Part shown: positions 51,448 to 63,971 of the stretch, in pieces
Numbering within the stretch: position 1 is the stretch's first letter
Layout of the letters: every line of letters begins with the position of its first letter
DNA from: Bacilli bacterium
GTDB lineage: Bacteria; Bacillota_I; Bacilli_A; RF39; UBA660
Length of the DNA stretch: 64,000 nt
Reading direction: 5' to 3'
Assembly: GCA_016283935.1 (NCBI GenBank)
Contig: JAEENX010000002.1
Span: forward strand, 1 to 64,000
Program-made: the position numbers and the translations under genes
The notes under the pieces: model-generated
The model's database searches: none
What the model was told of the DNA's origin: nothing
Seen by the model: the letters and a program-made list of their open reading frames with translations, nothing else

Positions 51448-51470
51448 AAGAATACATAGATGTATTCTTT
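51448..51470 (-). terminator. Terminator of the 326-aa surface protein gene
   Basis: Stem AAAGAATACAT/ATGTATTCTTT with T-run on the minus strand. Confidence 0.75.
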
Positions 51471-52450
51471 TATATTTCAGGAACATAACAATCAAAACTA
51501 TCTGATAGCTTTTCTTCTTTTGAATTTTCCTTATTTAAATCAAAATATTTAACACTGCATTTTGTCATAGTATTTTCTTCGGCATCTTCTTCATCATAGT
51601 TAATATAATAAAGAATATTATCTTTTATAATCATAGGAGTAAATCTTTGGTCAGATTCAGATATAAGAGTGTAATTTCTATAATGTCCATCTACTATTTT
51701 ATTATTGTTTTCATCTTCAATTTTAAAAACATGATTAAAACCAATACTACAACCAGCAGTATAATTTATATAATAATAACCATTTGTGAATTCCTTCCAT
51801 GTATTGCAAGTTGTTTCTGTTTCTTTATGGAATTTATATTTATCATTTACAACAATGTCAGCAATCCACTCTTTTTGTCCCCATGAAGAATCATTACTAA
51901 TTTCAGCTAACTTACAAGTGAATTTTACTTTTGATTTCTTGTATGTATAAGAAACTTCTTGTCCATCATTTTGACATCTTTTATATAAGTTATATTGAAT
52001 ATCATAAAAGTCTGTACTTAGATTAGCAACAGCTATCCTATCTTCTTGACTAGCTGTTGTTTGTTCAACATATTTAATATAATCATCAATATTTTTAATA
52101 TCAAGTAATTTAATTTCCTTTTTAGTAGTAATAGTTGTTGTAGGTTCTGTTGTAGTTGTTGTTTCTACGCCACTAGTTTGTTTTGGTTCATTTTTAATAT
52201 TGTTTGAATAATAATAGTAACCACCATATGAACCTCCTCCTAATATAATAATAGTAAATAAAACTATAACTATTGTTTTAAATGGTGATTTTTTTTCAAT
52301 AACTTGTTCACCAACTGGTTGAACAGCCTCTTGTTGAATTGGTATTTGTTCTTGCACAACTGGTTCTTCAACTTGAGATGGTTGAACATTTTGTACTGGA
52401 GGTACAGCTTGTTGTTCTCCTGAAGTTTTAAATAAATCTTCTTCTTTCAT
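51470..52450 (-). CDS. Single-pass surface protein with Thr stalk, paralogue A
   Basis: 326 aa. Gln/Val/Pro-rich cytoplasmic N-terminus (1-52), one helix (about 57-77), a Thr-rich stalk (VETTTTTEPTTTITTKK) and an extracellular Cys-containing domain. The domain shares FYDIQYNL-x-RCQNDG, WG-x-KEWIAD and other stretches with the gene at 53605-54699. Function unknown. The upstream motif TATTAGTTTATAATA (52478-52492) is shared with the NPPTG-type surface genes. Confidence 0.7.
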   Translation of the reverse strand: MKEEDLFKTSGEQQAVPPVQNVQPSQVEEPVVQEQIPIQQEAVQPVGEQVIEKKSPFKTIVIVLFTIIILGGGSYGGYYYYSNNIKNEPKQTSGVETTTTTEPTTTITTKKEIKLLDIKNIDDYIKYVEQTTASQEDRIAVANLSTDFYDIQYNLYKRCQNDGQEVSYTYKKSKVKFTCKLAEISNDSSWGQKEWIADIVVNDKYKFHKETETTCNTWKEFTNGYYYINYTAGCSIGFNHVFKIEDENNNKIVDGHYRNYTLISESDQRFTPMIIKDNILYYINYDEEDAEENTMTKCSVKYFDLNKENSKEEKLSDSFDCYVPEI

Positions 52451-53581: not shown

Positions 53582-53605
53582 AAAGAATACAATACTGTAT
53601 TCTTT
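53582..53605 (-). terminator. Terminator of surface paralogue B
   Basis: Stem AAAGAATACA/TGTATTCTTT with T-run on the minus strand. Confidence 0.72.
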
Positions 53606-54699
53606 TATGCTATCTCATTATTATAACAAGTTCCTTCAACATTCATATTCTTGATTGATGGATTTTCTTCATTAAAATCAATATATTTTATTCTACATGT
53701 AGATGTTGTACTTTCATCATATGTATCTGCAGCAACAAAATATACAATATTATCTTTAATTATTATTGGAGTATAATTATTGTAAGCATTTTCATCTGAA
53801 TTTGGATCACTTGTAAAATAGAATGTTGAATAATTACCATCATATAATTTTTCATTATTTTCAGTTTCGATAGTAACTTTTTGAGTACCAGCAACACATA
53901 CATGTTCTGTATTAATATAATATTTTCCATTTGTATATTCAGCCCATGAAAGACATGTTGTCATAGTTGTTTTATGTTTATTATATTTACCATTAACTTT
54001 AACATCAGCAATCCATTCTTTAGTTCCCCATTCTGGTTCAAGATTTGGATCTGATTGGCAAGTATATTCTACTTGTGAATTTCTAATAGTATAAGTAACT
54101 AAATCTCCATCGTTTTGACATCTTTCATTTAAGTTATATTGTATGTCATAGAAAGAATCATCTAGCAACAATGCATGTCCAGTTTCTCCATTAAAATTAT
54201 TATCTTTAACAAGTTTAGAATATTCTTCAATTGTACTAAATTTTAATAGTTTAGATTCAACTGTTGTAGTTGTTGTAGTTTCTGTTGTTGGTTCATTAGT
54301 ATTATTTGTTTTATTTAGCATAGGTAAAACAAATTTCCAGCATGCAAATCCTCCACCGCATAATAGAACTAAAACTATTAGTATAACAGGTAAAGCACTT
54401 TTCTTCTTTGTAGGTGATGGTACTTGTTGTACTGGAATTGCAACATTAGTTCCAAATGATGGATCAATTTGTGGTTCAACTTGTTGAACTGGTTGAGCAG
54501 TTTGTTGAACAGGTTGTTGTGCTATAGTTGGTTCAACTGGAGCTTTAACTGGTTCAGCTGGTGGAACTAAATTTTCCTTCATCATTTCTTGTTCCATTTG
54601 AGCAACTTTTTGATCAAGTGGATTAACTGGATTAGGTACAACGTTTGGTTGTGGATTTAAATTTGGTTGTACATTATTTAAATTATTTCCTTCGTTCAT
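53605..54699 (-). CDS. Single-pass surface protein with Thr stalk, paralogue B
   Basis: 364 aa. Asn/Pro/Gln-rich cytoplasmic N-terminus (1-97, many PVQQ units), one helix (about 103-123), Thr-rich stalk (TNEPTTETTTTTTVESK), then an extracellular domain that shares SFYDIQYNLNERCQNDG and EWGTKEWIADVKV with paralogue A. Several Cys suggest disulfides. Function unknown. Lies just downstream of the SipW-like operon but has its own transcription signals. Confidence 0.7.
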   Translation of the reverse strand: MNEGNNLNNVQPNLNPQPNVVPNPVNPLDQKVAQMEQEMMKENLVPPAEPVKAPVEPTIAQQPVQQTAQPVQQVEPQIDPSFGTNVAIPVQQVPSPTKKKSALPVILIVLVLLCGGGFACWKFVLPMLNKTNNTNEPTTETTTTTTVESKLLKFSTIEEYSKLVKDNNFNGETGHALLLDDSFYDIQYNLNERCQNDGDLVTYTIRNSQVEYTCQSDPNLEPEWGTKEWIADVKVNGKYNKHKTTMTTCLSWAEYTNGKYYINTEHVCVAGTQKVTIETENNEKLYDGNYSTFYFTSDPNSDENAYNNYTPIIIKDNIVYFVAADTYDESTTSTCRIKYIDFNEENPSIKNMNVEGTCYNNEIA

Positions 54700-54744: not shown

Positions 54745-54770
54745 AAATATGAACTAAAAAGTTCATATTT
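54745..54770 (-). terminator. Terminator of the SipW-like operon
   Basis: Stem AAATATGAAC/GTTCATATTT followed by a T-run on the minus strand, just after the last operon gene. Confidence 0.82.
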
Positions 54771-56297
54771 TTATATATCTACTGACATATATTCATATAA
54801 TATTGGATGTTCTCTAGTTCCAAATGATGATATACATGCTTCATATTCTTCATATGATGCTATACCATTGCAATCGTACATACTATTATACCAGTTATTT
54901 TCAAGTTCTTCTGCGTCAAAATTAACAACAGGTCTAATCCCTAATAATTCAGTAGAGTTAACTTGAATAATATTATTTTTGTTTCCTACTGCCCAAATCT
55001 TATTATTAGATGCACCAGTCATAGTCCAATATGCTGCATTTGTACCAATATAAGTATTATTGGATTCATTTATTGTTAATCCATGAATGTTTGCTTCATC
55101 TGCAGTTAATAAACCTACTGGATATTCCAATATATCTTCTTCATTACATTTGTTACTTGGATTATTTGGCTCATATGTATTAGAGTTACACATCTCAACA
55201 TCTTTTAAATATCTTCTGTTTTCTTCATCAAATGTTTCATAAAACCATGTTTCAATTGTATCTAACACATCACTTTCTTCAAAATTAAATGAACCATTTG
55301 AACTATATGATGATTTACCAATAAAAACATCTTCACCTGTATCCATACATTGACCTTGATCATTTGGATGACCATTGTACAAAGCTCTAATATAGAAAGG
55401 ATATCCATAATCTGATACAGCACCCTTTGTACCAGAACTAGATTTTAATTTAGAAGTATCGCCTCCTTTTACGCCTCCTCCACCAGATGATCCACCTGAT
55501 GTATATGAACTTGTAGATAGATATTTCCAACATATTCCATTAAAAATAAAATTATTATGATCATCTATATTATCTCTATGATATGAATAAATATGTGTAG
55601 GAGACCCATATTCATCTAATTCATAATCATATACCATCATAGTTTTTGTTGGGTTCTTTGAAAAATCAACAGAATGAATAAATACTCTTGAACTCTCTTC
55701 AGATTCATGAGTTGGGTCAATATCTAACATTTCTAGTAAGTAATCTTCATTGATAATATTTTCATATTCAAAAGTGAAATTCATAGTTAAATCAAATGAT
55801 TTACCAGTATTATTTAAATCTTCTAATGTTATATCATCTGGTAAATCATATGATATCTTTATTTTTCCATGTTTTATTTTATTATCTAAGAAATGAATTA
55901 TTAAACCTTCTTCTAATGGTTGATCATTTTCATCTAATATTTCTATATTTACTAAGTTCACTATATCAGGATCAGATATACCAAGATCAATTTTAGTTAA
56001 TCTTGCAATTAATGTTCCAACATTAACCATATTAAAATCTATAACGAAATAATCATCTGGATTTTCTAAATTTAAATTAAAATTCATTTTTGTTCTATCA
56101 TTACTATCTATTGTAGCTGTGTCTGTTGGATGAATGTTATTACCTGATAATCTTACATTATCAAATATTACTAAATAACTTACTTCAGCTAAGTTAGTAG
56201 TTCCATTTACTTTAAGAATAGTTGATAAAGTAGCATATCCAACTGTTATAAGTAATAGTAATATTAAAACTATAAATGATATTCTCCTTTTATTCAT
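54771..56297 (-). CDS. SipW-type secreted protein with shared C-terminal module, 4
   Basis: 508 aa. SipW-cognate signal region (VGYATLSTILKVNGTTN, about 19-35), a TasA/camelysin-like beta domain (about 36-185, DDYFVIDFNMVNVGTL), a Gly-rich linker (SSGGGGVKGGDTSK, near 270) and the operon's C-terminal module: CWKYLSTSS, a Cys pair, YPVGLLTADEANIHG, AYWTMTGA and RPVVNF. Unlike its siblings the final GTxxNPYxI is degenerate (GTREHPILYEYM). Last gene of the operon, 3 nt after the previous stop. Confidence 0.78.
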   Translation of the reverse strand: MNKRRISFIVLILLLLITVGYATLSTILKVNGTTNLAEVSYLVIFDNVRLSGNNIHPTDTATIDSNDRTKMNFNLNLENPDDYFVIDFNMVNVGTLIARLTKIDLGISDPDIVNLVNIEILDENDQPLEEGLIIHFLDNKIKHGKIKISYDLPDDITLEDLNNTGKSFDLTMNFTFEYENIINEDYLLEMLDIDPTHESEESSRVFIHSVDFSKNPTKTMMVYDYELDEYGSPTHIYSYHRDNIDDHNNFIFNGICWKYLSTSSYTSGGSSGGGGVKGGDTSKLKSSSGTKGAVSDYGYPFYIRALYNGHPNDQGQCMDTGEDVFIGKSSYSSNGSFNFEESDVLDTIETWFYETFDEENRRYLKDVEMCNSNTYEPNNPSNKCNEEDILEYPVGLLTADEANIHGLTINESNNTYIGTNAAYWTMTGASNNKIWAVGNKNNIIQVNSTELLGIRPVVNFDAEELENNWYNSMYDCNGIASYEEYEACISSFGTREHPILYEYMSVDI

Positions 56298-56300
56298 AAA

Positions 56301-57707
56301 CTAAAAACCTCCCTGTTCAATTCTATATGGATCATATATTGAACCTGAGCCATAGTTAAAAATATCATCAGTAACATGTATTACTGGCCTATAAGCTGTA
56401 GAATCTCCGAAATATTTTAATGTGTCAATAGAATCATATCTATAATATTCAAGAGGTGAGCTTCTATTTGAATATGTATAGCTTCCTAAAATATAATATT
56501 CACATTTACTATTAAACCAATAATACTCACTATAGTTTGCTTGACCAGGTGAAATATAAGTATTATTAAATCCAGCAAATACTAATTCCATAATATCAAC
56601 TGCTGCTATTGGATATGTTAATTCTCCTGTTGCAACACTAAATTGATGACCATTTGTACATTCTAAATTAATATCTTCTTTTGAAAATCCTTCTTCTGGC
56701 ATAGGAGTTTCACAAAAAGGTTCATCAACAATATAATTAGAATAAGATGACAAATTATTTTCATACCAAGTATTGACTTTATTAATTCCATCCATATTTT
56801 GATAATATGTATCTTCATCAGTATTTATATCTCTTAGTAATCGTATAGCAAAACCAGGTACAGTTACATGATAATCATGATATAAACAATAACCGTTTGC
56901 ATCTGGATCACCATTATATAAAAGTTTAACATTTCCGTTTGATGTTGTTCTTATAATTTTCCAACAATGACCTGCAAAGTATGCATGATTTAAAACTTCT
57001 TTATTTCCTCTATAAAATAATATAGGATGTTCATCATTTTCGGTTGGAGCATATACATACAATCCATTATATTCATTATGTGATGTTGAATCGAATAATA
57101 ATGCTCGAGAATTCATATACTCTGTTGGTTGATGAACCCCTAAATAATAATCATTAATATATGATTGATTTACATTTTTAAATTCTATTTCATAAGTAAC
57201 AGTGGTAGATATTTCACCTTTATTTAAATATGTTTCATCTAATGTACTATCTAAATAAAATCTAGTACGAAAAGCAAGTGCTACTCTTGAATGAGGTTGT
57301 ATTTTTTCACCAACTTTAAGAACTTTCCCAGTACTTTTATTATTAACAGATGCATTAATTATAGCCGAAACAGAATCTTCTTTTGTAATTGTTATATTTG
57401 TAATTTCAATTGCAATATCACTATCATTAACTAATTCAGCATATACATAATATTCATCACCAACATCATTGAAAGTTGGTGTTACTGTTATAGTTTTTCC
57501 ATCATTGTTTAAAGAATATAAATTAACGTATTTAGTATCATTAAACATATCATATACATTTTCATAATGAGCACTATATTCATTACGATTAAGCATCATT
57601 TCTCCATTAAAATTAGAAGATATAACAATAGATGCAAATCCAATAGTCATCAAAAATAATACTGGAATTATAATAAACAATTTATATGATTTTATTTTTT
57701 TCTTCAT
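56301..57707 (-). CDS. SipW-type secreted protein with shared C-terminal module, 3
   Basis: 468 aa. Signal segment with MTIGFASIVISSNFNGEM-type SipW pattern (about 20-37), TasA-like domain (about 38-185, GDEYYVYAELVNDSDIAIEI), then the C-terminal module: HCWKIIRTTSNGNVKLLYNG, a Cys-containing DEPFCETPMPEEG, YPIAAVDIMELVFAG and RPVIHVTDD ending GSGSIYDPYRIEQ. The recurrent CWKIIRTT and YNG blocks mark a family I recall as DUF6273/FGE- or lectin-like in gut Firmicutes; exact assignment unsure. Confidence 0.78.
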   Translation of the reverse strand: MKKKIKSYKLFIIIPVLFLMTIGFASIVISSNFNGEMMLNRNEYSAHYENVYDMFNDTKYVNLYSLNNDGKTITVTPTFNDVGDEYYVYAELVNDSDIAIEITNITITKEDSVSAIINASVNNKSTGKVLKVGEKIQPHSRVALAFRTRFYLDSTLDETYLNKGEISTTVTYEIEFKNVNQSYINDYYLGVHQPTEYMNSRALLFDSTSHNEYNGLYVYAPTENDEHPILFYRGNKEVLNHAYFAGHCWKIIRTTSNGNVKLLYNGDPDANGYCLYHDYHVTVPGFAIRLLRDINTDEDTYYQNMDGINKVNTWYENNLSSYSNYIVDEPFCETPMPEEGFSKEDINLECTNGHQFSVATGELTYPIAAVDIMELVFAGFNNTYISPGQANYSEYYWFNSKCEYYILGSYTYSNRSSPLEYYRYDSIDTLKYFGDSTAYRPVIHVTDDIFNYGSGSIYDPYRIEQGGF

Positions 57708-57729
57708 ATTGTATATCTCCTTTCATTTT

Positions 57730-59007
57730 TTATTCTTCGTCTATATAATATGGGTTACTAATAGTTCCCTCACCAGAAATCCTAAATCCTCCATGTAAAT
57801 AAATAACTGGTGTAATATAATATTGTTGTGTATTTCCATATCCTTGTGACACATAAAATTCTTGATCTTGATTTAACAAACCTACATTTTGATTAGTTAT
57901 TGCAGTTCCAGCAAAAAGCACATCATCTATAGATGGTATAGCAACTGGATATACTAATTTTCCATTTGTAATTGAATATTCATCACTGCAATCTCCCCAA
58001 TTCAAATCACTAAGATTACTTGTATTACAAAAAGGTTCATCTGATAGATATGCCTGATACTTAATTAAATTTTTAAAATACCATGCATCTATATCTCTTT
58101 GTCTTATTGAACCAACATATGGCTCTCCTGTAGCAGTATAAAAATAATTAATATAATTACCGAATATATCATCACAAGATGTTCCATTATATGATAATTT
58201 TAATCCACCAGTTGATGTCGTTCTTATTATTCTCCAACATCTATCACCAAATAACATAAAATTTGTATTATTTACGGTACCCCAGCTACCTTTATAATTA
58301 TTAAAGAAAAATATAGGATTTGGATCATCTAAGGTATTATCGATAACATAAAATCCCATGGAATTATATCCATATTCTTCAGAACTTATAAGTTTTGCTT
58401 CTCTATTTAATAATCTACTATATGTTTTACTTGTATTATGTGTTTCTTCATAAGATTTCATTGAACTGTTAACAAAGTTCAATGAAATACTAGAACTAAA
58501 ATAAGAATCTGTATCTATTGAACGAGTATCAGTTACATCATCAGCAACTCTATATCTTATTTCAAATATAATTGATGTAGTTGAATTACCTTCAAAAAAG
58601 TCTTCTTCTTTTACTTCTAAATAACTATCTGCGTAGAACATTCTAATATTAAACATGTCATATCCATTAGTGTGATTAATATTTATATCTGATAACTTAG
58701 CACCTAAATTACCATGATTAACAACGTCAAATTGAAATCTATATACATCTCCTACTTTTAATAATTCAATATCAAAATCTATAACATTATGTTCTGCATC
58801 AGTTATATGTGCATCTTCTGTAACACTTGCAGTATTTTCTAATATTTGAATATTTTCAATACGTACATCATAATTAACTGTTCCTGTTGCTACTGTTCCG
58901 TTTATTGTTAATTTAGTTGTTATTGCAGCATATCCAATTATCATTGAAAGCATTAATAATAAAATAATTAATACTCTTAGTCCTTTTTTTCTAGGTCTAA
59001 TTTTCAT
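57730..59007 (-). CDS. SipW-type secreted protein with shared C-terminal module, 2
   Basis: 425 aa. SipW-cognate signal (IIGYAAITTKLTINGTV), TasA-like domain (about 40-180, GDVYRFQFDVVNHGNLGAKL), C-terminal module with RCWRIIRTTSTGGLKLSYNG, DEPFCNTSNL, YPVAIPSIDDVLFAG and TPVIYLHGGFRISGEGTI SNPY-type ending. The start overlaps the preceding stop (ATGA), so translation is coupled. It is the shortest of the four module proteins. Confidence 0.8.
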   Translation of the reverse strand: MKIRPRKKGLRVLIILLLMLSMIIGYAAITTKLTINGTVATGTVNYDVRIENIQILENTASVTEDAHITDAEHNVIDFDIELLKVGDVYRFQFDVVNHGNLGAKLSDININHTNGYDMFNIRMFYADSYLEVKEEDFFEGNSTTSIIFEIRYRVADDVTDTRSIDTDSYFSSSISLNFVNSSMKSYEETHNTSKTYSRLLNREAKLISSEEYGYNSMGFYVIDNTLDDPNPIFFFNNYKGSWGTVNNTNFMLFGDRCWRIIRTTSTGGLKLSYNGTSCDDIFGNYINYFYTATGEPYVGSIRQRDIDAWYFKNLIKYQAYLSDEPFCNTSNLSDLNWGDCSDEYSITNGKLVYPVAIPSIDDVLFAGTAITNQNVGLLNQDQEFYVSQGYGNTQQYYITPVIYLHGGFRISGEGTISNPYYIDEE

Positions 59008-60479
59008 TTGGGACCACCTCCACCACCAGATGATGAAGAATCAGGTTCTAAACCTTCAACTATATATGGGTTTGAAGGTGTACCTTCACCAGATATTTTT
59101 ACTGTAGATTTCAATGTAATTACTGGGTATACTTTTAATTGATTTATATTAGGTAATGAAGATGTTGTATCATATCCAATTAATCCAAGTGCTTTTGTTT
59201 TATAATTAACACTTCCTGTCATTGTCCAATAGTTTTGCCAAGAATCTTCAACACTTAACCATGAATTAGATGGTTCATAAACATTGTAACCACATAAATT
59301 TGCTTCAGGAACATCGATTAGAGCAATAGGTCTATATAATTTGCCATTAGCTACATTCATTCCTCTTCCTTCATCACATGTTAAATCTGTTATATCATCT
59401 TTATAAAAACGATAATTATTACAATATGTATAATCTTCTATTAATTCATTACTTGATAGATCACATATACTACCTTCTGGTTCTATTGTAGCTGCTCTAT
59501 TTCCTCTTGCTACGGATCCACCTCCACCACCACCATCAGAGCTACAATCCATAAACATTTGATTTATTAAACTTTCACTATAATCAACATTATCTTCTTC
59601 CGAATAATAACTATATGTATATGTGTCTCTATAAGTATCACACATTCCATCATATTGATAACCATTATAAATTAATTTGATTCCACCAGTTTCAGTTGTT
59701 CTAATAATTCTCCAACAATAATTATTTGTAATCAAATAATTATTTGTTGAAGTACTATTTCCTCTATAGAAATATATTGGAACTTCATTTTCTTTTTTTA
59801 GTTCAAATAAACCTGATGTTCCATTTTTAAAACTTCTATTAAAATCTATCTTATTTGATGAATATATATTATTTTGATTTATTCTTATTAAATCATTAAT
59901 TGGATCTGTTACTGTAGTAAGTGATGCTATGTCTGATACACCAGTTTTTCTTGTATTTACATATTTAATACTAGTTTTGACTGTAATAGGATTACTTGTA
60001 TCAGGTAATTCTTCAACAAGTCCATCAGGCATCATATAACCAATTATTATTTTTACTGGTACTATATCTCCAGGATCTAACACATCTCCAACTCTTAATT
60101 CAGTTCCCCATTCATATATTGTTCTTGTAAAAATATACTCAGATAAATTCTCAGGTATTCCAGTTAATTTTATTTCTTCAATTTCTCCTGCAATTGTTCC
60201 ATCATTAACAATATTTGCATTTAAAGAAACCATTGAACCTAATTCATCTAAACTAATCTCAAAATTTATCTCAGTTTGTTTTTCATCTGTATATGTAGGT
60301 GCACTAATTACAGTAAAATCATTTCCTTCAAGTACTGGATTTGCAAAATGAATATTAAATATTTGTCTTCTTAATCCAATAACTGAATTTAGATCAAAGG
60401 TAGATGCTAAAATAGCATATCCAATAGACATGAACAATACTACTAATAAAACAATTAATATTGATTTATTTTTTTTCAT
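59004..60479 (-). CDS. SipW-type secreted protein with shared C-terminal module, 1
   Basis: 491 aa. SipW-cognate signal (SIGYAILASTFDLNSVI), TasA-like domain (about 38-178, GSMVSLNANIVNDGTIAGEI), C-terminal module with YCWRIIRTTETGGIKLIYNG, several Cys (YTYCNNYRFY, LTCDEG), YWTMTGSV, VYPVITLKSTVKISGEG and a SNPYIVEG end. Adds a Gly-run insert (GGGGGGSVARGN) and a Ser/Gly-rich tail. First of the four module proteins, 22 nt after the small membrane protein gene. Confidence 0.8.
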   Translation of the reverse strand: MKKNKSILIVLLVVLFMSIGYAILASTFDLNSVIGLRRQIFNIHFANPVLEGNDFTVISAPTYTDEKQTEINFEISLDELGSMVSLNANIVNDGTIAGEIEEIKLTGIPENLSEYIFTRTIYEWGTELRVGDVLDPGDIVPVKIIIGYMMPDGLVEELPDTSNPITVKTSIKYVNTRKTGVSDIASLTTVTDPINDLIRINQNNIYSSNKIDFNRSFKNGTSGLFELKKENEVPIYFYRGNSTSTNNYLITNNYCWRIIRTTETGGIKLIYNGYQYDGMCDTYRDTYTYSYYSEEDNVDYSESLINQMFMDCSSDGGGGGGSVARGNRAATIEPEGSICDLSSNELIEDYTYCNNYRFYKDDITDLTCDEGRGMNVANGKLYRPIALIDVPEANLCGYNVYEPSNSWLSVEDSWQNYWTMTGSVNYKTKALGLIGYDTTSSLPNINQLKVYPVITLKSTVKISGEGTPSNPYIVEGLEPDSSSSGGGGGPK

Positions 60480-60501
60480 TTAACATCTACCTCCTATCTA
60501 A

Positions 60502-61122
60502 TTATTTTTTCTTCTCTTTTGGTATCTCTACATCTCTAATTGGAGATACTACAAAAGATCTATTATTGAATTTGATAATTGTTGTATTTTCAATTCCATC
60601 TAATATTTTAGAATCTTTATCATAATTATCTAATTCTCTATTTTCTCTTTCTAATCTTATTTGTTTCTTCTTTTCTTCCTCCCTTAGCATTCCATCAAGA
60701 ACTGCTACTACATCTTTGTTTTTTCTTAGAATAAAGAAACAATATTCTCTTCGATCTAATAATACAAAAGTACAAGAATTAACATCTAAATAATAAAATA
60801 TAGGTTTTCTTACTTCTACCTGAGCATCTATTAAATCTTCAATACTATTTACTTTTATAATATTTCTTTTTTCAATACTAGGTACTTCATCAACTTTTAT
60901 TAATACAGCATCAAATGTTTTTAATATTTCTTTTAAATTACTTTTATATATCTTATTTTCATCTTTACTTTCAATATAAGCTATAAGCCATAAAGTAAAA
61001 GAAAAAGCAAATGCTATACCAGTCACTAAAGTATATTCAAATAAATCAAATACACATAAAGGAATAGTAAAAACTAAAGCTAATATCCATAATACTAGAA
61101 GTTTATTCTTATAAATAATCAT
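60502..61122 (-). CDS. Two-helix membrane protein of the SipW-like operon (DUF5305-like)
   Basis: 206 aa. Two N-terminal hydrophobic helices (about 6-24 and 31-49), then a soluble, probably cytoplasmic domain. The stretch IIKVNSIEDLIDAQVEVRKP resembles DUF5305-type proteins found next to SipW-like peptidases. A basic/acidic coil (REEEKKKQIRLERENREL) and a final VVSPIRDVEIPKEKKK follow. It stops 1 nt before the peptidase stop region and is coupled to it. Possibly an accessory or scaffold factor for export; assignment is tentative. Confidence 0.6.
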   Translation of the reverse strand: MIIYKNKLLVLWILALVFTIPLCVFDLFEYTLVTGIAFAFSFTLWLIAYIESKDENKIYKSNLKEILKTFDAVLIKVDEVPSIEKRNIIKVNSIEDLIDAQVEVRKPIFYYLDVNSCTFVLLDRREYCFFILRKNKDVVAVLDGMLREEEKKKQIRLERENRELDNYDKDSKILDGIENTTIIKFNNRSFVVSPIRDVEIPKEKKK

Positions 61123-61123
61123 A

Positions 61124-62272
61124 TTATCCTATCCTTTCTGTTAACCATACTGTAGGCCATGCTAAATATGGTATTGTAAATGTGATTTTACCAACTAATT
61201 CATTGTCAGTTACTTCAACATTATCGTTTGTATTATTTGCATCTCCTTTAGTATCAACTGCTATAATTCCATCTTGATTCATTTCCTTTGATACAATTCT
61301 ATGAATGATGATTCTATCATCTTTTCTATATGCAATGATATCTCCAACTTTAAGATCTTCTATCTTTTGCTTTTTATCTACCATTACTGCATCACCTTTT
61401 TTAATAGATGGATACATAGAACCTGATGCAATACCTATTAATTGAAATCTAAAATAACCAGATATAAATATAACTAATACGAGTACAATGAAACCAATAA
61501 CTATATCAACTACATTAAATACTCTATGGTTAAACTCTGGTGTTGTTTTATCATAATATTCGCCTATCATACGAGAAGCAAATATATAGATTGCATATGG
61601 TAATAGTATTCCTAATAAACTAACCACATAATCATTTAAATTTGGGAATACAGGTATAACAAACATATAAATTGACATTATTATGTTATATATAAGAGGT
61701 GGTACAACTCCTAAGTTATAACTTAAATAACTTAATAATAAGTTCTTAGCAAAAGCTGGTAATATAGCTTTTGTGATTAAATTAAATATAGATACTATTC
61801 CACCTATATTTGAGAAGTCTAATGTTAAATTTATTTCTATTAGAGTTGCCACGATTGTAAATAACACGATCAAATATTTTTTGTCTCTATTTCCTGATAT
61901 AAATATATATCTTAAAAATTCAGCACATGCTATATATACTATTAACCCAAATGAACTATCAAATACTCCTTTTATTGAGTATTCAAAATTTGTTGTTTTA
62001 TATCCTGTAAGTATTCCTATGCCATATATACCTATAAAATATATAGTTGTAACAATAAATACTAGGATTGTAACATTTCTTTTAATATTATTAATTTTGC
62101 ATTTTTTATAACCAAATAATAAAAATGCTATAAATACCATCAATATCATAAAAGCAGATATTAAGGCATACGAAATATGTGAAAAATGATTTATCAGGAT
62201 AGTTCTATAAATTATAGTAAATAATGTCATTACTATAAGTAATATTATCCCCCTAATATCTCTTTGATTCAT
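61124..62272 (-). CDS. SipW-like signal peptidase I with long N-terminal membrane domain
   Basis: 382 aa. The first about 275 residues hold about eight hydrophobic helices, far more than the one or two of SipW. The catalytic part follows: SGSMYPS with Ser285, a IIIHRIV with His324 (ER/archaeal/SipW-type Ser-His instead of Ser-Lys), TKGDANNTND with Asp344. It should release TasA-like proteins from their signal peptides. Neighbours on both sides are such proteins. The N-terminal domain is unassigned. Confidence 0.88.
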   Translation of the reverse strand: MNQRDIRGIILLIVMTLFTIIYRTILINHFSHISYALISAFMILMVFIAFLLFGYKKCKINNIKRNVTILVFIVTTIYFIGIYGIGILTGYKTTNFEYSIKGVFDSSFGLIVYIACAEFLRYIFISGNRDKKYLIVLFTIVATLIEINLTLDFSNIGGIVSIFNLITKAILPAFAKNLLLSYLSYNLGVVPPLIYNIIMSIYMFVIPVFPNLNDYVVSLLGILLPYAIYIFASRMIGEYYDKTTPEFNHRVFNVVDIVIGFIVLVLVIFISGYFRFQLIGIASGSMYPSIKKGDAVMVDKKQKIEDLKVGDIIAYRKDDRIIIHRIVSKEMNQDGIIAVDTKGDANNTNDNVEVTDNELVGKITFTIPYLAWPTVWLTERIG

Positions 62273-62293
62273 ATTGATCTTTCCTTTTAATTA

Positions 62294-62857
62294 TTAAACA
62301 CTTGTAAATGTCATTGAATAACTTAAAGTGAATGTTTCATCATCTTCTGGTAAAACATCAGATTCTTTATAAGAAATTGAAACAGTTACTGTTTTTTCAC
62401 TTCTTTTATTTAAAGTGAATCCTTCAGCTACTTCATTATTATCAGAATCTTTAACTGTATAAGAAATATAGTCTGGTAATTCAGCTGTTTCAGTTCCTTT
62501 TTTTATTACTAATACAGGATCACTTGTTAATGTTGCATCATATGAACTTTGATTTTCAATTACTGCATCAAATGTATAAGTGTCTCCTAATTCTTCTAAA
62601 TTAACTGCAAATGTAATTTCTTTCTTATCTGAAGAAATAGCAGCAGCTGTTTCAGGAGTAATATTTCCTGTCTTATTGTCATCTACACTTTTGAAGAATA
62701 CCTTCCAAACTGTTTTGCTAACACCAATACTAGAACCGTTAATTCCTACTATTGTTGATAATGTTGCATAACCAATAGAAATAAATAATACTCCTATTAA
62801 TAGAACTAAAATTACTATAGCTCTTCTCTTTTTTGATTTTTGTTTTTGTTTTTCCAT
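62294..62857 (-). CDS. TasA-like SipW-dependent protein
   Basis: 187 aa, just signal plus one domain. SipW-cognate signal (SIGYATLSTIVGINGSSIG, about 25-43), then the TasA/camelysin-type beta domain (WKVFFKSV, ITFAVNLEELGDTYTFDAVI, NQSSYDATL), ending in a beta strand near 187. In Bacillus such proteins form matrix fibres. It lies directly before the peptidase gene, as TasA lies next to SipW in Bacillus. The absence of any extra domain makes it the likely main fibre subunit. Confidence 0.85.
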   Translation of the reverse strand: MEKQKQKSKKRRAIVILVLLIGVLFISIGYATLSTIVGINGSSIGVSKTVWKVFFKSVDDNKTGNITPETAAAISSDKKEITFAVNLEELGDTYTFDAVIENQSSYDATLTSDPVLVIKKGTETAELPDYISYTVKDSDNNEVAEGFTLNKRSEKTVTVSISYKESDVLPEDDETFTLSYSMTFTSV

Positions 62858-62869
62858 ATAAACTCTCCT

Positions 62870-63916
62870 TTATCTTCCTATTTCCGGATTTAATATATAA
62901 AAATCCCTTGTGGAATTTGTATAATACGGTACATTAACAGCATCAACTCCATCAGGGACTGTTAAATAACCATTCGTACTAAACTCTTCATACACCTCCT
63001 CTGCACTCTTTCTACTCACAATTGTATTATTATTTAAATATGTAATAAATACACCATCAGTAGTTCCTTCGGATCCATTTGAATCTTTACTTTCAAATGA
63101 ATTTGCTTTTATATGATCACCAGGTATAACAGGAATCACTATAGATTCATCTATACCTTCTATAATTGATAATTTACCATTTTCATCATATGCTTTCTTT
63201 AATGTAAATTCATTATTTCTTACAAGAAACTTTTTATAACGATTTGTATATGCATGATTAAAGTATGACGAATTACTTGGATTATTATAAATGGCATATG
63301 GATTATAAGAAAAACGTTCTGCTCCATTTATGTTTACACCCTGTGTATCTTGATAAGAATTTTGTTTAATATTGACTGTAAAGCTTAATGATAAAGATTG
63401 TCCAGAAAGTGCTTCTAAAGCTTGAGTTGAACCCTCTAGATAATAACATACAGTTGGTATGGTTGTATTATTCTTTTTAATATAACCGTGATAATATGAA
63501 TTAGAATATGTTGCACTTTTAAATCCAAAGTAAGTTTTTACACCTGATGGAATTGATCCATTATTGGTAATAGTTACATCTACAGGAATAGTTCCACTAT
63601 TTTCAACTGCAAAGTTAATACAAACAGTTTCTCCCACTTCACCTAAAACACCATTCCAAGTAATTGTTTTTCCATCATCTGATAAAGTTATGGTTGATTC
63701 GTCATTGTAATTTTCATCTGAAGTATCAGTAAAATTAACACTTTCAGGAACAATACGAACTCCCCAAGTTATATTTCCAACAGTAATATTACTAACCGAA
63801 TTTACTGTTAATTCCAACAAACTATATCCAATTGTAATCGCTAAAACGGGCACTAAAATAAGCAGAAAAACCCACTTATTGCGCTTCACGTTCCACGACT
63901 TGCGCATCTTTAACAT
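62870..63916 (-). CDS. SipW-type secreted protein, first gene of the operon
   Basis: 348 aa. N-terminal basic segment (KRNKW), hydrophobic helix and ITIGYSLLELTVNSVSN, a SipW-cognate pattern, then a TasA-like domain (about 45-140, TITWNGVLGEVGETVCINFA). The rest (about 150-348) is unlike the other module proteins: NPYAIYNNPSNSSYFNHA and a beta-rich C-terminal part without the CWRIIRTT block. AGGAGTGA is 8 nt before the ATG. Possibly an anchor or adaptor of the fibre, by analogy with TapA; this is inference. Confidence 0.72.
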   Translation of the reverse strand: MLKMRKSWNVKRNKWVFLLILVPVLAITIGYSLLELTVNSVSNITVGNITWGVRIVPESVNFTDTSDENYNDESTITLSDDGKTITWNGVLGEVGETVCINFAVENSGTIPVDVTITNNGSIPSGVKTYFGFKSATYSNSYYHGYIKKNNTTIPTVCYYLEGSTQALEALSGQSLSLSFTVNIKQNSYQDTQGVNINGAERFSYNPYAIYNNPSNSSYFNHAYTNRYKKFLVRNNEFTLKKAYDENGKLSIIEGIDESIVIPVIPGDHIKANSFESKDSNGSEGTTDGVFITYLNNNTIVSRKSAEEVYEEFSTNGYLTVPDGVDAVNVPYYTNSTRDFYILNPEIGR

Positions 63917-63942
63917 ATAAACTCACTCCTATATTACATATA

Positions 63943-63971
63943 AATATACTATCAATAAAAAGTCATGTAAA
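63943..63971 (-). promoter_or_regulatory. Promoter of the SipW-like operon
   Basis: TTTACA (63966-63971), 17-nt spacer, TATATT (63943-63948) on the minus strand, about 27 nt before the first start codon. It defines the operon's upstream end inside the window. Confidence 0.75.

What the first reader, a model, noticed from the sequence alone, without database searches (positions are those of the whole stretch)
54745..63971. Complete eight-gene SipW-like export operon with modular TasA-type proteins
Promoter (63943-63971) and terminator (54745-54770) bracket eight close or overlapping genes: a lead secreted protein, a TasA-like protein, a Ser-His signal peptidase, a DUF5305-like membrane protein and four proteins with SipW-cognate signals, TasA-like domain and a shared Cys-rich C-terminal module (CWRIIRTT...YNG, DEPFC, RPVI.L, GEGT.SNPY). 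Bacillus tapA-sipW-tasA has one fibre subunit; here four fused variants suggest a decorated or multi-ligand fibre. What is seen: gene order, motifs, signals. What is inferred: fibre/matrix role.
Basis: partly seen in the sequence, partly recalled or inferred. Interest (0 to 1): 0.88.

Follow-up and report, generated by a model that had tools for sequence, protein, structure and literature searches.

The report
SipW–TasA-like operon with adhesin-headed subunits
A small uncultured bacterium carries an eight-gene unit with its own dedicated export enzyme and six secreted proteins that share a filament-type domain, four of them tipped with a domain that gut phages also put on their tails, so it probably builds a sticky surface fibre; this is a new variant of a known kind of system.

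Summary
Eight co-directional genes (63916 to 54771, minus strand) form one unit: short gaps or overlaps, a hairpin terminator directly after the last gene, and another terminator just upstream of the promoter region, beyond the window's edge. The third gene is a SipW/Sec11-type Ser-His signal peptidase carrying an extra ~250-residue, eight-helix N-terminal domain. Six secreted proteins share a SipW-type signal and one beta-sandwich domain, related by profile to archaeal bundling-pilus protein AbpX and more weakly to TasA. Four carry a second, homologous C-terminal module. Across the taxonomic family, TasA-like protein + long SipW + DUF5305 is a conserved core (25 of 26 loci have DUF5305 next door). 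The module is a family-wide domain (105 of 145 genomes), DUF6273-like by transitive evidence, and also forms the C-terminus of a phage tail-tip protein: probably a C-type-lectin-like binding head. The operon was recently exchanged between two species (synonymous divergence 0.02-0.10 against 0.26-0.78 elsewhere), and its secreted subunits evolve with omega about 0.9 against 0.08 in housekeeping genes. Best reading: a fibre with four adhesive subunit types. Fibre formation and binding are inferred. Multi-subunit SipW operons are known (C. perfringens, B. cereus), so this is a new variant.

The parts
63943..63971 (-). putative sigma-70 promoter (TTTACA-17-TATATT), 27 bases upstream of the first start codon
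   Evidence: sequence and (10/12 match; not above chance by count); placed in the 111-base gap after an upstream terminator
62870..63916 (-). lead secreted protein, 348 aa: SipW-type signal (ITIGYS), TasA-like beta domain, unique C-terminal part, no module
   Evidence: groups with the TasA-like set; no Pfam or NCBIfam family
62294..62857 (-). P2, single-domain TasA-like protein, 187 aa, signal SIGYA; candidate main fibre subunit
   Evidence: profile A2 matches AbpX in PDB E 6.5e-7
61124..62272 (-). long SipW/Sec11-type signal peptidase, 382 aa: about 8 N-terminal helices (invariant E118, R121, P210) plus S26 catalytic domain with Ser285 and His324
60502..61122 (-). short-form DUF5305 membrane protein, 206 aa: two-helix hairpin plus conserved cytoplasmic domain, ectodomain missing
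   Evidence: (39.9 bits, profile 125-217 only)
59004..60479 (-). M1, 491 aa: SipW-type signal (SIGYA), TasA-like domain, C-terminal module
57730..59007 (-). M2, 425 aa: SipW-type signal (IIGYA), TasA-like domain, C-terminal module; overlaps M1 by 4 bases
56301..57707 (-). M3, 468 aa: SipW-type signal (TIGFA), TasA-like domain (modelled beta sandwich 46-180), C-terminal module
54771..56297 (-). M4, 508 aa: SipW-type signal (TVGYA), TasA-like domain, divergent C-terminal module with insert
54745..54770 (-). intrinsic terminator hairpin with U tract, beginning directly after the M4 stop codon
   Evidence: z = -6.0

Best explanation
The operon encodes a dedicated-peptidase filament system of the SipW/TasA/AbpX class whose subunits carry adhesive heads. 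Six precursors pass the Sec translocon with a signal ending in GYA or similar; the long SipW-type Ser-His peptidase cleaves them. P2 is the bulk filament subunit: the freed N-terminal strand (TLSTIVGING-like, L-x-T-x-L-x-I-x-G in relatives) completes the beta sandwich of the next subunit by donor-strand exchange, as in TasA. M1-M4, with the same N-terminal domain, enter or cap the filament and display a C-type-lectin-like DUF6273-type head that binds glycans or surface proteins. The lead protein may start or anchor the filament, and the DUF5305 protein with the membrane domain of the peptidase forms the assembly platform. Shown: gene order, unit boundaries, homologies, catalytic residues, shared N-terminal domain, conserved core, phage use of the module, recent inter-species exchange and raised omega. 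Inferred: cleavage, polymerisation, roles of lead and DUF5305, fold and binding activity of the head.
For: Conserved core in 26 long-SipW loci: DUF5305 next door in 25, TasA-like directly upstream in 20 and in the cluster in 23. All six secreted proteins of the window align with the family TasA-like domain without signals (hhalign 99.7%, E 2e-25; controls below 0.5%). That profile hits AbpX E 6.5e-7 and 2e-5; single relatives hit TasA 6e-4, camelysin 5e-4, BsaA 8e-3. M3 model: N-terminal beta sandwich, pLDDT mostly 60-87; Foldseek hits include TasA fibre 8aur and a Sulfolobus thread. Peptidase closest to Sec11, 3e-22. Module relatives match DUF6273 (10 of 43, best 2.7e-7); DUF6273-like domains were modelled as C-type lectin folds in phage receptor-binding proteins (PMC10743442). 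The module is the C-terminus of a phage gene between a collagen-like tail fibre gene and a holin-sized gene plus CHAP lysin. Secreted subunits omega 0.92, machinery 0.29 (Fisher 3e-5), housekeeping 0.08.
Against: No window protein matches TasA, camelysin, BsaA or DUF6273 models directly. The camelysin link rests mostly on the signal region: without signals hhalign falls to 16%. Foldseek hits for M3 are dominated by generic Ig-like folds. The module could not be modelled (mean pLDDT 44) and its Foldseek hits are meaningless. Nothing shows polymerisation. Omega near 1 can also come from relaxed constraint or short divergence time.
Confidence: 0.5

Rival explanations
1. Membrane- or wall-bound surface lectins without a fibre: SipW processes or fails to process each precursor, and the TasA-like domain is only a stalk that holds the module at the surface.
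For: In related genomes the same signal + TasA-like + module proteins are dispersed single genes, not in SipW operons; filament formation is untested.
Against: Here a single-domain TasA-like protein sits next to the peptidase, as in most core loci, which fits a bulk subunit; the L-x-T-x-L-x-I-x-G strand after the cleavage region is conserved.
Confidence: 0.28
2. Biofilm-matrix or S-layer-like coat: the secreted proteins form a protective layer or matrix, with the modules joining cells or fibres together rather than binding a host or environmental ligand.
For: TasA and BsaA proteins form biofilm matrix (PMC9674648, PMC7395162); subunit diversity and raised omega fit immune or phage pressure on a coat.
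Against: The phage tail-tip use of the module favours ligand binding; no exopolysaccharide gene lies in the operon.
Confidence: 0.15
3. The module is an enzyme or inhibitor (for instance a formylglycine-type enzyme in a lectin-like fold) rather than a binding head.
For: Lectin-like folds also occur in enzymes (own knowledge); invariant or near-invariant Cys, Trp, Arg, Glu and Gly positions exist in the wider family.
Against: Cys sets differ between M1-M4; few polar residues are conserved between the framework motifs; the phage tail context points to binding.
Confidence: 0.07

Closest known systems
tapA-sipW-tasA operon, Bacillus subtilis (PMC9674648, PMC10151520)
   Same: Dedicated SipW-type peptidase, co-encoded precursors with SipW-type signals, beta-sandwich subunits
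   Different: SipW here has an extra eight-helix domain; a DUF5305 partner is present; no TapA or TasA family match; six secreted proteins, four with a second module
sipW-bsaABCRSD, Clostridium perfringens (PMC7395162)
   Same: One SipW-type peptidase followed by several secreted proteins; BsaA forms filaments and needs SipW
   Different: No two-component regulator here; window proteins do not match the BsaA model; module proteins and DUF5305 added
TasA/CalY/CapP filaments, Bacillus cereus (PMC13082335)
   Same: More than one structural subunit in one filament system, sortase-independent
   Different: No direct sequence-family match; no such module seen in what was read of that paper (abstract and outline)
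Archaeal bundling pili, AbpX (PDB 9sj2, 9rhp)
   Same: Profile match E 6.5e-7 over the mature domain
   Different: Archaeal; gene neighbourhood of AbpX not examined here
DUF6273 C-type-lectin domains, tentaclins (PMC10743442)
   Same: Module relatives match DUF6273; the module is also found on phage tail-tip proteins
   Different: Here C-terminal and fused to a TasA-like domain in bacteria; no retroelement was looked for around the window copies; window copies themselves fall below detection

Membership tests
SipW / ER- and archaeal-type signal peptidase (TIGR02228) | score above curated cut-off | tested here: met
   92.0 vs 51.85 bits; 96.3 in the genome scan
SipW / ER- and archaeal-type signal peptidase (TIGR02228) | Ser-His catalytic residues, no Lys general base | tested here: met
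   Ser285 and His324 at least 90% conserved in 25 homologues; best PDB relatives Sec11A/C
Bacillus SipW equivalog (NF046067) | score above 190 bits | tested here: not met
   66.3 bits
TasA / camelysin family (PF12389, NF046066) | profile score above cut-off | tested here: not met
   no match in own genome or in the proteins; only single relatives weakly
TasA/AbpX filament superfamily | homologous mature beta-sandwich domain | tested here: met
   PDB AbpX E 6.5e-7; window domains vs family profile 99.7%; camelysin without signals only 16%, so the TasA branch is less certain
TasA/AbpX filament superfamily | polymerisation by donor-strand exchange | not testable with these tools
   candidate donor strand conserved after the signal; no experiment
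DUF5305 (PF17231) | score above cut-off | tested here: met
   39.9 vs 29 bits, but profile positions 125-217 only
DUF5305 (PF17231) | full-length form with the N-terminal half of the profile (ectodomain) | tested here: not met
   protein is 206 aa and starts with a helix hairpin; the second locus of this genome has the full form
DUF6273 (PF19789) | score above cut-off | tested here: inconclusive
   M1-M4 give no match; 10 of 43 homologous modules match at E<0.01, best 2.7e-7
C-type-lectin fold | fold | tested here: inconclusive
   model too poor (pLDDT 44); fold taken from DUF6273 models in PMC10743442
BsaA / sipW-bsaABCRSD | BsaA model TIGR04090 match and linked two-component system | tested here: not met
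   no match in window proteins; no regulator among the eight genes
TapA (accessory subunit) | profile match of the lead gene | tested here: not met
   no family for the lead protein

The most novel reading that the evidence does not exclude
A lineage-wide surface-adhesion strategy of genome-reduced gut Bacilli: donor-strand filaments whose subunits are fused to a large family of lectin-like heads, using the same head that phages of this habitat use on the tail tip, assembled by a membrane complex of DUF5305 and a SipW with its own eight-helix platform domain (retained even where the peptidase is dead), with whole operons moving between species and heads diversifying quickly.
Probability: 0.3. 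Interest if true: 0.75.

Novelty: new variant of a known kind. Interest (0 to 1): 0.52.

Why it matters
Uncultured small-genome Bacilli have few known ways to hold on to surfaces. A conserved TasA-like + long SipW + DUF5305 core, with subunits that add a head domain shared with phage tail tips, would give this group a testable adhesion apparatus, suggest a role for DUF5305 and for the module, and tie bacterial and phage receptor binding to one domain family. The core can be tested in a laboratory Bacillus.

Tried and rejected
Consensus promoter counts (not above chance). Rfam search of the operon: nothing. PADLOC: no defence family among the five proteins tested. PDB profile hit of the module to antibody light chains: rejected, it fades to E 3.9 with the deeper alignment. 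Amino-acid permease, PknB and MgtC matches: weak, membrane-helix noise. Structure of the module in two attempts: too weak to use. DNA-level cassette switching inside the window: no repeat above 80% over 56 bases between the modules, so no evidence of phase variation here. Contig mis-binning as the cause of low divergence: rejected, both contigs carry polA at the same flank with normal divergence. tblastn of M3 and of the phage module against GenBank phages: no match.
Full report
WHAT IS THERE. The window is bases 1-64000 of an 85.6 kb contig of a 1.29 Mb draft genome. The nearest named relative is a MAG contig titled 'uncultured Bacillales bacterium' (CAMOID010000025.1), which has the same length and gene coordinates as genome G009's contig. 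On the minus strand eight ORFs follow one another from 63916 to 54771 with gaps of 12, 21, 1, 22, -4, 22 and 3 bases. A strong hairpin with a U tract starts directly after the last stop codon. Upstream, a TPR protein gene ends in its own perfect hairpin terminator at contig 64040-64008, and about 110 bases separate its stop from the first start codon. The promoter-like site at 63971-63943 lies in that gap; its match count alone means nothing. So the unit is bounded on both sides.

PEPTIDASE. The third protein is a SipW/archaeal/ER-type signal peptidase: TIGR02228 92 bits against a cut-off of 51.85, SipW equivalog 66 bits against 190. Its nearest solved relatives are Sec11A and Sec11C (3e-22), far better than LepB. 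It carries an N-terminal region of about 250 residues with eight predicted helices that matches no Pfam family beyond chance. In 25 homologues this region keeps E118 and R121 and a P207-x-x-P210 element. Two homologues (L050 13969-15210, L052 9735-10940) have lost both catalytic residues (aligned Ser to Ala, His to Asp) yet keep the N-terminal region; both lie near an intact homologue in the same genome. This suggests (inference) that the membrane domain has a task other than peptide cleavage.

SECRETED PROTEINS. All six have a hydrophobic N-terminal segment ending in GYA, GFA or GYS. Their mature N-terminal domains align with a family profile of TasA-like proteins from relatives (99.7%, E 2e-25, signals removed; controls below 0.5%). 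That profile finds AbpX of archaeal bundling pili in the PDB (E 6.5e-7 and 2.4e-5) and TasA itself only at E 2.2; single members find TasA, camelysin and BsaA models at 5e-4 to 8e-3. Against camelysin-like proteins of other Bacilli, full-length profiles match (94%, E 1.5e-7) but mature parts alone do not convincingly (16%). The relation is therefore to the TasA/AbpX class, not membership of the TasA family. AlphaFold gives the M3 N-terminal domain as a beta sandwich (residues 46-180, pLDDT mostly 60-87), and Foldseek lists the TasA fibre and a Sulfolobus thread among many Ig-like folds.

CONSERVED CORE. Of 26 long SipW homologues with readable context, 25 have a DUF5305 protein directly downstream and 20 a TasA-like protein directly upstream (23 counting the whole cluster). 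The four-module extension is rarer: G000 and G009 have it; G002 and G007 have one giant fourth protein with a module, in G002 also with repeat and glycine-rich domains. This genome has a second core locus at C4 (L041) with full-length DUF5305 and a 518-residue protein bearing a very distant module tail. In the window the DUF5305 protein has only the membrane and cytoplasmic half.

MODULE. The four C-terminal modules are homologous to each other and to a family-wide domain: 105 of 145 genomes of the family have it, up to about 20 scored copies per genome (candidate counts up to 112). Only one genome outside the family matched among 149 sampled from the class. In most relatives whose N-terminus was read it is fused to a SipW-type signal and a TasA-like domain, in one to a type IV pilin signal. 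Ten of 43 modules match DUF6273 (best 2.7e-7). A published study found DUF6273-like domains of phage receptor-binding proteins to have C-type lectin folds (PMC10743442). Independently, an IMG/VR phage contig of 49.5 kb (L165) has this module as the C-terminus of a gene that follows tail and collagen-like tail fibre genes and precedes a holin-sized gene and a CHAP lysin. This is the strongest contextual reason to call it a binding head. Its fold could not be modelled here.

EVOLUTION. Between G000 and G009, homologous genes elsewhere differ by dS 0.26-0.78; the eight operon genes differ by only 0.016-0.097. The low-divergence tract starts between polA and the lead gene and runs to the end of the G009 contig. 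Because both contigs carry polA at normal divergence, this looks like recent exchange of the operon between species. Within it, P2 and M1-M4 have omega 0.92 (237.5 replacement, 66.5 silent differences), the other three genes 0.29, and polA plus enolase 0.08; modules change twice as fast as the N-terminal domains in replacement rate (0.064 vs 0.032). Relaxed constraint or youth of the split could contribute; the internal contrast with the machinery genes (Fisher 3e-5) argues for surface-driven change.

INTERPRETATION. TasA subunits polymerise by an N-terminal donor strand that completes the next subunit (PMC9674648). P2 and its relatives keep an alternating hydrophobic strand right after the cleavage region. 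The most likely working is a donor-strand filament with P2 as bulk subunit and M1-M4 as head-bearing subunits, released by the dedicated peptidase; lead and DUF5305 roles are guesses. Precedents exist for several secreted proteins in one SipW operon (PMC7395162; B. cereus, PMC13082335), and other Bacilli genomes sampled here show SipW-type genes with two or more cognate proteins beside them. What is new is the long SipW, the DUF5305 partner and the lectin-like heads. No paper in the held library mentions DUF5305.

Noticed in passing
G000:C4:65944-67065 (L041 7237-11775): A second TasA-like + long SipW + full-length DUF5305 + 518-aa secreted protein locus in the same small genome; at normal divergence from G009.
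   Followed up: partly
L042 (G000:C4:166000-185999): A cluster with several short SipW-type peptidases and secreted proteins with TYAWF-type signals; the 1.29 Mb genome has eight TIGR02228 matches in all, six above the cut-off.
   Followed up: no
L050 13969-15210 and L052 9735-10940: Long SipW homologues with both catalytic residues lost, near an intact homologue in the same genome: pseudo-peptidases that keep the membrane domain.
   Followed up: partly
L124/L166 and L125/L167 (IMG/VR contigs): Two phage contigs are 100% identical for about 3 kb up to a point inside the module, then only about 65% alike and with different downstream genes: recombination of the receptor-binding head or an assembly chimera.
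   Followed up: partly
L126-L145 (genomes G123, G082): Many dispersed signal + TasA-like + module genes per genome at about 75-80% DNA identity, many at contig ends: a large lineage-specific surface family.
   Followed up: partly
window 53605-54699 and 51470-52450: Two paralogous membrane proteins with a Pro/Gln-rich start (shared FYDIQYNL..RCQNDG motif) flank a third gene just downstream of the operon terminator; no Pfam family above cut-off.
   Followed up: no
L001 1027-2616 (contig 64027-65616): A TPR protein gene between polA and the operon is absent at that place in G009.
   Followed up: no
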